Assembly: GCA_019310725.1 (NCBI GenBank)
Contig: JAFDDT010000023.1
Location: 1 to 32,898, forward strand
Reading direction: 5' to 3'
DNA from: Deltaproteobacteria bacterium
GTDB lineage: Bacteria; Desulfobacterota; DSM-4660; Desulfatiglandales; B25-G16
DNA length: 32,898 bases
The stretch's first letter is position 1, and every line of letters begins with the position of its first letter. Both the position numbers and the translations under genes were made by a program. This document shows positions 6,314 through 8,532 of the stretch, piece by piece. A model generated the notes under the pieces. It was not told where the DNA came from. It was given only the letters and a program-made list of their open reading frames with translations, and searched no databases.

Positions 6314-7012
6314 ATGTCTCTGAGAAAGATATTACTTTTAGCGCTGGGGGTTGTCTTACTAAGCGGGACAGTTTATGCAGAAGATGCCCCTTTACACCTG
6401 GATAGAAAAAATGCGATTGCACTTAAATTAGGGTGGCACTGGTATGAAACCAGCGATGTGTTTGATTTCTGGCACTTTAACGAAAATAATTTTGACTGTC
6501 CCGTGTGGACTTTCGCTTACGAGAGAATGATTCGTGAGCGCCTCGGGATTGAGGTTTCCCTCGGGCTTTTTGAATCAAGCGAGAGCAATACAGCCGGCTC
6601 TGATCTTGCTATAACAAACATCTTTATATCCCCCACCGCCAAATACTACCTTCCCATGGGGGATAGCTTTGTGTTTTATGCCGGTGCAGGATTTGACTAC
6701 TATAATACCAAGTGGGATCACAAATACTCAGGCGCCTTTACCTATGCATATGGACATGATCGTTTCAACACCTTTGGACTCCACGGGCTGGGAGGAGTTG
6801 ACTGGTATATTTTTAAGGACCCGGAAAAATACGGTTTTTACGGCGCCCCGGTAAGCCTTTTTCTGGAATACCAATATACCTATCTCAATATAGATGGTGC
6901 TGATGATAGGGTGATACGAGAACGCAATGCTCAATTGGGCGAATCCAATCCCACGCATGATCTCGATCTAGGAGGATCAATGGTTTTTCTTGGTATCAGA
7001 TGGCACTATTAG
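6314..7012 (+). CDS. Small outer-membrane beta-barrel protein
   Basis: 232 aa. A signal peptide is clear: basic MSLRK, a hydrophobic core, and a probable cut after VYA (residue 22). The mature part has alternating hydrophobic/aromatic strands (for example FVFYAGAGFDYYN, VSLFLEYQYTYLN) and ends in an aromatic residue (GIRWHY), as recognised by the BAM machinery. This fits an OmpW-like or general eight-strand porin-like barrel, but I do not recognise a named family. It has its own near-consensus promoter and a strong Shine-Dalgarno, which suggests a monocistronic, well-expressed gene. It faces the agmatinase gene convergently. A function beyond outer-membrane location cannot be assigned. Confidence 0.85.
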   Translation: MSLRKILLLALGVVLLSGTVYAEDAPLHLDRKNAIALKLGWHWYETSDVFDFWHFNENNFDCPVWTFAYERMIRERLGIEVSLGLFESSESNTAGSDLAITNIFISPTAKYYLPMGDSFVFYAGAGFDYYNTKWDHKYSGAFTYAYGHDRFNTFGLHGLGGVDWYIFKDPEKYGFYGAPVSLFLEYQYTYLNIDGADDRVIRERNAQLGESNPTHDLDLGGSMVFLGIRWHY

Positions 7013-7153: not shown

Positions 7154-8008
7154 TTATCGGTTTTTGAAGATATAACTCAAGAATTTGAAGACCAGTTTGG
7201 CAGCAATAAAATCAGGAGCCCTGTTGTGTCTGTTTGGCTTCAGTTCTACCACGTCAAAGCCAACTACATGCTTTTTTTCAGCCACTTCCTCTAAAAGCCT
7301 GATTACTTGGTGCCAGTCAAGCCCTCCTGGCTCAGGAGTTCCGGTAGATGGCATTATGGAGGGATCAAATACGTCGAGATCGATGGTTACATAAACATTG
7401 CGCGACAAAAGATCAACTACCTTCTGAATCCAGTCACTTCTCAAGAAGATATCTTGCTCAAAAAAAACCCTTGATATATCCAATCGATTAAATTCTTCCC
7501 TGCTCATCGACCTAATTCCTACTTGCACCGTTGGGCAAACTTCCTCTATTCTCGCCATTACGCAGGCATGATTGAACATAGAGCCATGGTATGATTCCCT
7601 CAGATCGGCGTGAGCATCAAGCTGCAGAACGGTAAGGTCTGAAAAGTTATCCTTGAGTGCCTGGACAGCCCCTGGAGTTACTGAATGATTCCCTCCCAGC
7701 ATAACCGGAAATTTGCCATCTTCAGTAAAGGACAAGAAATTCTGTTTAATAACCTGAGCGAGCTTTTCCGGTGATCTTGGAAGATGGGGCAACTCAAAGG
7801 TGTGTATCCCATGTAGATGCACCTCGCTATCGGTCTCAATATCATACAATTCTACATGTGCTGAGGCCTCAATAATTGCCTCTGGCCCTAGATCTGCACC
7901 CTTTTGCCAGGTAGCGGTATAGTCATACGGAACCGGCATTACGATTATCCTGGCCGACTTATAATCGGTCCAATTGCAGTCCTTTCCTCCAAATGGGGTG
8001 TTACTCAT
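7154..8008 (-). CDS. speB: Agmatinase (ureohydrolase family)
   Basis: 284 aa. It hydrolyses agmatine to putrescine and urea in the cytoplasm, a route of polyamine synthesis. All binuclear Mn ligands of the arginase/agmatinase fold are present: H108 (GGNHS), D131, H133 and D135 (DAHADL), D210 and D212 (IDLDVFDP). The TGTPEPGG signature favours agmatinase over arginase or formiminoglutamase. The ATG start overlaps the stop of the upstream AdoMet-decarboxylase-like gene as ATGA, so the two are translationally coupled. No arginine decarboxylase of another fold is visible in the window, which makes the neighbour's activity important for where agmatine would come from. Confidence 0.95.
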   Translation of the reverse strand: MSNTPFGGKDCNWTDYKSARIIVMPVPYDYTATWQKGADLGPEAIIEASAHVELYDIETDSEVHLHGIHTFELPHLPRSPEKLAQVIKQNFLSFTEDGKFPVMLGGNHSVTPGAVQALKDNFSDLTVLQLDAHADLRESYHGSMFNHACVMARIEEVCPTVQVGIRSMSREEFNRLDISRVFFEQDIFLRSDWIQKVVDLLSRNVYVTIDLDVFDPSIMPSTGTPEPGGLDWHQVIRLLEEVAEKKHVVGFDVVELKPNRHNRAPDFIAAKLVFKFLSYIFKNR

Positions 8009-8532
8009 GCTGTGACCTGAGCTCCATAGATGTCTCTTGGAAACCCTGTTCCACTTTCAACCATACAAACCTCTGGCTTCAAAGAGGCAAATGCTCCGAC
8101 AATGAGATCTCTCGCCATATCCGTATCAAACGGTTTACATGAAAAAAGATCAACAAAACTATAACCCTTATCCACAAAGGCATGAATCGATAAATGACCC
8201 TCAGCTATGACCACAAAACCTGTTATACCCTTGCCATCAGGTATCTTTCCAGTATAGGGAAATACATACGGTTGAGTGATTTCAGTCATCCCAATCTTAT
8301 GAGGTAGGGTATTGAGGAAACTTGAGATGAAATCAAGATCGCAGATCCTTTCCTGATCGCACTCAGATAAATCCAGCATAAGATGTAGGGCCAAAATAGG
8401 ATTTGTTGTCCATTTCTCATAAACCCTCCCTGTTGAAGATATCACCATATGATCAGCCAATAATACACAAAACGGGATTTCTCTCAACTTCTTTTTATAA
8501 AAAATCCTTTTCGCCATCAATCTCTGATGCAT
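8005..8532 (-). CDS. AdoMet decarboxylase (SpeD/SpeH) family protein lacking the pyruvoyl serine
   Basis: 175 aa. The core from about residue 48 matches class 1B AdoMet decarboxylases; bacterial SpeH is about 130 aa, so there is an N-terminal extension of about 45 aa. In the active-site block AEGHLSIHAF the processing His (H117) and catalytic Cys (C132, FSCKPFD) are at the canonical spacing. The Ser that self-cleaves to make the pyruvoyl cofactor is Gly112 (codon GGT at 8199-8197). By family knowledge such a protein should neither process nor decarboxylate. Related proteins have been shown to act as arginine or ornithine decarboxylases, which would suit the coupled agmatinase, but those keep the Ser. 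It may be an inactive regulatory partner, a repurposed protein or a decaying gene. The ATG at 8532 has no good Shine-Dalgarno; an alternative is the ATG at 8517, and the frame stays open upstream to 8628. Confidence 0.8.
   Translation of the reverse strand: MHQRLMAKRIFYKKKLREIPFCVLLADHMVISSTGRVYEKWTTNPILALHLMLDLSECDQERICDLDFISSFLNTLPHKIGMTEITQPYVFPYTGKIPDGKGITGFVVIAEGHLSIHAFVDKGYSFVDLFSCKPFDTDMARDLIVGAFASLKPEVCMVESGTGFPRDIYGAQVTA

What the first reader, a model, noticed from the sequence alone, without database searches (positions are those of the whole stretch)
8005..8532. AdoMet-decarboxylase homologue with Gly in place of the pyruvoyl serine, coupled to agmatinase
Seen: the block reads AEGHLSIHAF, so the position of the cleaved Ser (ESH in Thermotoga SpeH) is Gly112, codon GGT at 8199-8197; His117 and Cys132 keep exact spacing. 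Known: the Ser becomes the pyruvoyl cofactor, and some relatives became arginine or ornithine decarboxylases. Inference: this protein cannot self-process, so it is either a regulatory pseudoenzyme (like the trypanosome prozyme), a repurposed binder or a decaying copy. Yet its stop overlaps the intact speB start as ATGA, which suggests a kept role in agmatine/putrescine metabolism.
Basis: partly seen in the sequence, partly recalled or inferred. Interest (0 to 1): 0.62.

Follow-up and report, generated by a model that had tools for sequence, protein, structure and literature searches.

The report
Dead speD gene beside agmatinase
The gene is a broken copy of a known bacterial polyamine decarboxylase: the glycine that replaces its key serine is one of many decay mutations, and a frameshift sits near its start, so it is an ordinary pseudogene and not a new regulatory protein.

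Summary
The letters are as reported: an AdoMet_dc domain with GGT (Gly) at the pyruvoyl-serine position, followed by speB with an ATGA overlap. The interpretation as a kept pseudoenzyme fails.

Fifteen orthologues from the same family and order all have Ser, including three same-genus copies 87-88% identical to this one. They start at a conserved ATG that is also in the window (8413). There the window carries a +1 change (CCCTACATC for CCCCCATC, 8387-8386), so the real frame stops at 8363.

On the window's own branch speD has 14 nonsynonymous and 4 synonymous changes, the neutral ratio; speB has 3 and 7. Over 19 kb aligned to a relative, this is the only frame-breaking indel inside a conserved gene. 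The genome holds no second AdoMet_dc protein to regulate. Its canonical speD plus nearly all of speE were removed by a 1,768-bp deletion shared with a sister species.

Best reading: a decaying pseudogene of a probable SpeD-type arginine decarboxylase that once fed agmatinase, in a lineage losing polyamine synthesis. The ATGA overlap is inherited from the intact operon. Interest is low.

The parts
8005..8385 (-). Remnant of the speD-type (AdoMet_dc) gene, in frame from HLMLD... to the stop; 88% identical to the intact G012 protein over this stretch
   Evidence: PF02675 1.7e-20; alignment with intact orthologues
8411..8413 (-). Original start codon (ATGGACAAC, MDNKSYFGP...), preceded by GGGAGGG at 8430-8424
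   Evidence: ATG conserved at this place in L001-L006; coordinates
8386..8387 (-). +1 frameshift: CCCTACATC where same-genus relatives have CCCCCATC (TA in place of one C, so not a homopolymer slip)
8363..8413 (-). What the original frame now encodes: MDNKSYFGPTSYAGFI, then a stop
8414..8532 (-).
8197..8199 (-). GGT (Gly) at the pyruvoyl-serine position (AGT or AGC in aligned orthologues)
8182..8184 (-). His codon equivalent to Thermotoga His68 (kept)
8137..8139 (-). Cys codon equivalent to Thermotoga Cys83 (kept)
7154..8008 (-). speB, agmatinase; intact and under purifying selection
   Evidence: TIGR01230 225.8 bits against cut-off 174.3; dN/dS 0.06-0.11 against same-genus copies

Best explanation
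This is a young pseudogene. The intact gene in relatives is a pyruvoyl-type SpeD homologue in an operon with agmatinase, and outside this genus often with a deoxyhypusine-synthase-like gene. It is probably an arginine decarboxylase (SpeDA) making agmatine for SpeB. In the window's lineage selection on it ceased: a +1 frameshift after codon 9 cut it to a 16-residue peptide, and Ser to Gly, Thr to Ala and about a dozen other replacements accumulated at the neutral rate. speB beside it is still conserved. Shown: the frameshift, Ser in all orthologues, the neutral ratio, and loss of the other speD and speE. Inferred: the original arginine decarboxylase activity, and that no protein is made now.
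For: Ser and an open frame in 12 same-family and 3 same-order orthologues. +1 change and conserved ATG. Window branch 14 nonsynonymous:4 synonymous in speD against 3:7 in speB, Fisher p=0.02; P=4e-5 if omega were 0.12, while omega=1 fits. No other frame-breaking indel inside a conserved gene in ~19 kb aligned to G012. Only one AdoMet_dc in the genome; speDE deletion at C194. Cluster speD-speB-DHS-like in L003, L058, L059 matches the proven ADC cluster of Ca. Marinimicrobia (PMC10407285).
Against: The genome is a 343-contig draft (93% complete, 3.1% contaminated); without reads an assembly error at the frameshift cannot be excluded. The domain downstream stays open for 126 codons without a stop, so decay is recent. 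A TTG at 8394 or ATG at 8379 could restart translation. Same-genus copies also show relaxed constraint (omega ~0.2-0.5), against which 14:4 is only marginal (P=0.08).
Confidence: 0.9

Rival explanations
1. Regulatory pseudoenzyme like trypanosome prozyme: an uncleaved SpeD paralogue that activates an active partner or modulates agmatinase.
For: Fold residues, His and Cys are mostly kept; speB beside it is intact. Dead AdoMetDC paralogues with this role exist in trypanosomes (PMC5201418).
Against: No catalytic AdoMet_dc partner in the genome; canonical speDE deleted; frame broken; neutral substitution ratio; Gly in no relative.
Confidence: 0.03
2. Frameshift and Gly are both assembly or sequencing errors and the gene is normal.
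For: Fragmented draft genome; reads not available here.
Against: Two independent lesions plus about 12 further replacements at the neutral ratio in this gene only; the adjacent speB is clean; the +1 is not in a homopolymer; no other such indel in ~19 kb.
Confidence: 0.04
3. Translation restarts at TTG 8394 or ATG 8379, giving a stable, uncleaved SpeD-like protein that binds a ligand (repurposed binder).
For: In-frame start codons exist just at the frameshift; the domain is open to the end.
Against: Selection signature is neutral. Mutating the processing serine abolished the activity of the mutated domain in a related fusion enzyme (S79A, S229A; PMC10407285), so at best a non-enzyme would result. 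My look at the 20 bases before each start shows no Shine-Dalgarno-like run.
Confidence: 0.03

Closest known systems
SpeDA: SpeD-derived pyruvoyl arginine decarboxylase in SpeD-SpeB-SpeY clusters (Li et al. 2023, PMC10407285)
   Same: AdoMet_dc domain, next to speB and, in family- and order-level relatives, a DHS-like gene; no SpeA, ODC or PvlArgDC family found; the Pro said to mark true AdoMetDC is absent (HAFVDK here, HTFVDK/HTFVEK/HTFARK in family orthologues)
   Different: Window copy lacks the pyruvoyl Ser and has a broken frame; activity of the intact orthologues is untested; same-order copies (L058-L060) and L006 keep the Pro
Class 1b AdoMet decarboxylase SpeD/SpeH (Thermotoga maritima, 1tmi/1vr7)
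   Same: Fold family; His68 and Cys83 equivalents in place
   Different: Ser63 equivalent is Gly; linked to agmatinase and not to speE; relatives carry a separate canonical speD beside speE
Trypanosoma brucei AdoMetDC prozyme
   Same: AdoMetDC homologue without catalysis
   Different: Prozyme is an expressed partner of an active enzyme; here there is no partner, no constraint and a frameshift
Degraded SpeD domains in SpeD-SpeDC fusions (Lentisphaerota, Desulfobacter latus; PMC10407285)
   Same: Loss of active-site residues in a SpeD homologue
   Different: Those are fused to an active SpeD; this is a stand-alone broken gene

Membership tests
SpeDA (SpeD-derived arginine decarboxylase) | AdoMet_dc (PF02675) domain | tested here: met
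   1.7e-20, 73.8 bits against cut-off 25
SpeDA (SpeD-derived arginine decarboxylase) | Pyruvoyl-forming Ser with intact reading frame | tested here: not met
   Window: Gly and +1 frameshift; met in 15 orthologues
SpeDA (SpeD-derived arginine decarboxylase) | His68 and Cys83 equivalents | tested here: met
SpeDA (SpeD-derived arginine decarboxylase) | Pro that marks AdoMetDC not conserved | tested here: inconclusive
   Absent in the window and the same-family orthologues; present in same-order L058-L060. Position inferred from the paper's text, figure not seen
SpeDA (SpeD-derived arginine decarboxylase) | Genomic context: speB or AguA/AguB, no SpeA or ODC | tested here: met
   speB adjacent; PF01862 and PF01276 absent; the sole PF02784 hit is lysA
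SpeDA (SpeD-derived arginine decarboxylase) | Decarboxylates arginine | not testable with these tools
   Needs an assay of an intact orthologue
AdoMet decarboxylase SpeD (TIGR03330 equivalog) | Score over curated cut-off 75.65 | tested here: not met
   Window ORF 57.7; intact G012 orthologue 78.5
Prozyme-like pseudoenzyme | Active paralogue to regulate in the same genome | tested here: not met
   Single AdoMet_dc match in G000; draft genome caveat
Prozyme-like pseudoenzyme | Kept under purifying selection | tested here: not met
   14:4 nonsynonymous to synonymous on its branch
Pseudogene | Disrupted frame relative to orthologues and neutral substitution | tested here: met

The most novel reading that the evidence does not exclude
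The frameshift is an assembly error or is bypassed by a restart at TTG 8394, and this lineage makes a stable SpeD-fold protein without a pyruvoyl group that is kept as a non-enzymatic partner of agmatinase.
Probability: 0.03. Interest if true: 0.5.

Novelty: new member of a known kind. Interest (0 to 1): 0.15.

Why it matters
It removes a false pseudoenzyme candidate and shows why a missing catalytic residue should be checked against orthologue frames first. As a small evolutionary case, it shows a lineage that lost both of its SpeD-type genes, one by deletion and one by point decay, while keeping agmatinase. That predicts that the organism must get polyamines or agmatine in another way.

Tried and rejected
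Gly fixed in a clade: rejected; Ser in every orthologue inspected. A second Ser-containing speD as partner: none in G000, and the syntenic canonical speDE is deleted. Alternative source of agmatine: no PvlArgDC, OKR_DC or SpeA-like gene found; PF02784 hit is lysA. Second arginase-family gene of G000 (C331): lies by an aminotransferase-like gene and a BMP-type ABC transporter with no decarboxylase recognised in the ~11 kb around it, not informative. potA search gave generic ABC ATPases only, none over cut-off, so uptake is unresolved. No structure was predicted: a model of a frameshifted remnant would not decide between the readings.

Full report
Observation. The ORF at 8005-8532(-) exists and reads AEGHLSIHAF, with GGT at 8199-8197 where Thermotoga SpeH has its cleaved Ser. 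The AdoMet_dc domain is unambiguous (PF02675 1.7e-20) and the next gene is a convincing agmatinase (TIGR01230 over cut-off), overlapping by ATGA.

Gene boundaries. A genome scan returned six loci. A DNA alignment with these shows that all have a start codon at the place of window 8413 (ATGGACAACAAATCC in the window, behind a purine-rich GGGAGGG), followed after a few codons by FG-P/V-HL-M/I-LD.... The window shares this start but has CCCTACATC where same-genus relatives read CCCCCATC. The original frame therefore gives MDNKSYFGPTSYAGFI and stops at 8363. The N-terminal ~48 residues of the reported protein are thus an artefact.

Is Gly fixed? No. Twelve orthologues from the same family and three from the same order at about 60% identity all read ESH. 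The other family-level and order-level SpeD paralogues read here also carry Ser. Three same-genus copies, 87-88% identical to the window, have Ser and an intact frame.

Selection. Taking changes unique to the window against the unanimous state of three same-genus copies supported by outgroups, speD has 14 nonsynonymous and 4 synonymous changes over 126 codons (295 and 82 sites, so about equal rates), and speB has 3 and 7 over 271 codons. The synonymous rates are similar, so the excess is one of replacements. Fisher p=0.02; under the purifying selection seen between other genera (omega ~0.12) the probability of 14 or more of 18 is 4e-5, and omega=1 fits well. Under a genus-wide relaxed omega of 0.4 it is 0.08. 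The replacements include the pyruvoyl Ser, the Thr after the catalytic His, and conserved Asp, Glu and Arg positions.

Is the frameshift real? Over about 19 kb aligned to relative G012, seven indels were found. The one at 8386 is the only one inside a gene conserved in both; the others are between genes, or (6990) in the last bases of an outer-membrane-protein ORF whose body is not aligned. The lesion replaces one C by TA and is not a homopolymer miscount. Reads were not available, so a local error is not strictly excluded.

Genome context. The genome has one AdoMet_dc match, the window copy. In G012 a canonical speD lies next to speE (L074 5268-6501). In the window's genome the same neighbourhood is continuous at C194 but lacks 1,768 bp of it, removing all of speD and all but the end of speE; sister G011 has the same junction. 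No arginine or ornithine decarboxylase of the three other families was found; the only PF02784 hit is lysA. No deoxyhypusine-synthase-like gene was found in G000, though G013 has one elsewhere and G003 and G007 have it beside speB. The genome is 93% complete, so single absences other than the deletion are not proof.

What the intact gene does. In L003, L058 and L059 the order is speD-like, speB, DHS-like, the last matching NF002699, 1,9-bis(guanidino)-5-aza-nonane synthase, in L003. The same order in Ca. Marinimicrobia contains a SpeD homologue shown to decarboxylate arginine and not to restore spermidine (PMC10407285). By this analogy the intact gene is probably SpeDA, supplying agmatine. The absence of the distinguishing Pro in this family agrees, but the order-level copies have it, so the substrate assignment is inferred and not tested.

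Mechanism now. Mutating the processing Ser abolished the activity of the mutated domain in a related fusion enzyme (S79A, S229A), and by the known chemistry of this family Gly cannot give a pyruvoyl group. Together with the frameshift and the neutral ratio, the locus is best read as a pseudogene. The ATGA overlap is inherited from the intact operon (present in L001, L002 and L005) and says nothing of a kept role. A prozyme-like role (PMC5201418) lacks its partner.

Noticed in passing
L081 (G000:C194:20500-26645) around 2274; L082 (G011:C204) around 2274: A 1,768-bp deletion relative to G012 removes canonical speD and nearly all of speE, with the same junction in the window's genome and G011 (2-bp overlap at the join).
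   Followed up: yes
L019/L048 (G011:C93:3119-3523): The intact-frame speD of G011 has C9W and D10V (counting from HLMLD) in the ECD motif that the other copies keep, and no unique synonymous change; it may be decaying too.
   Followed up: partly
L074 6864-7005 and 1321-1570: Short stretches that match at tens of places in each genome of this genus: dispersed repeats.
   Followed up: no
L003 7548-8567; L058 and L059 downstream of speB: DHS-like gene beside speB matches the 1,9-bis(guanidino)-5-aza-nonane synthase model (tested for L003), suggesting that agmatine itself, and not only putrescine, may be condensed.
   Followed up: partly
L061 (G083:C329:2283-3015) and L065 (G084:C171): Two SpeD homologues side by side, like the speD-speDC pairs of Li et al. 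2023.
   Followed up: no
window 6314-7012 (+): Outer-membrane beta-barrel ORF directly downstream of speB whose body has no alignment in the corresponding part of G012: a lineage-specific insertion or loss.
   Followed up: no
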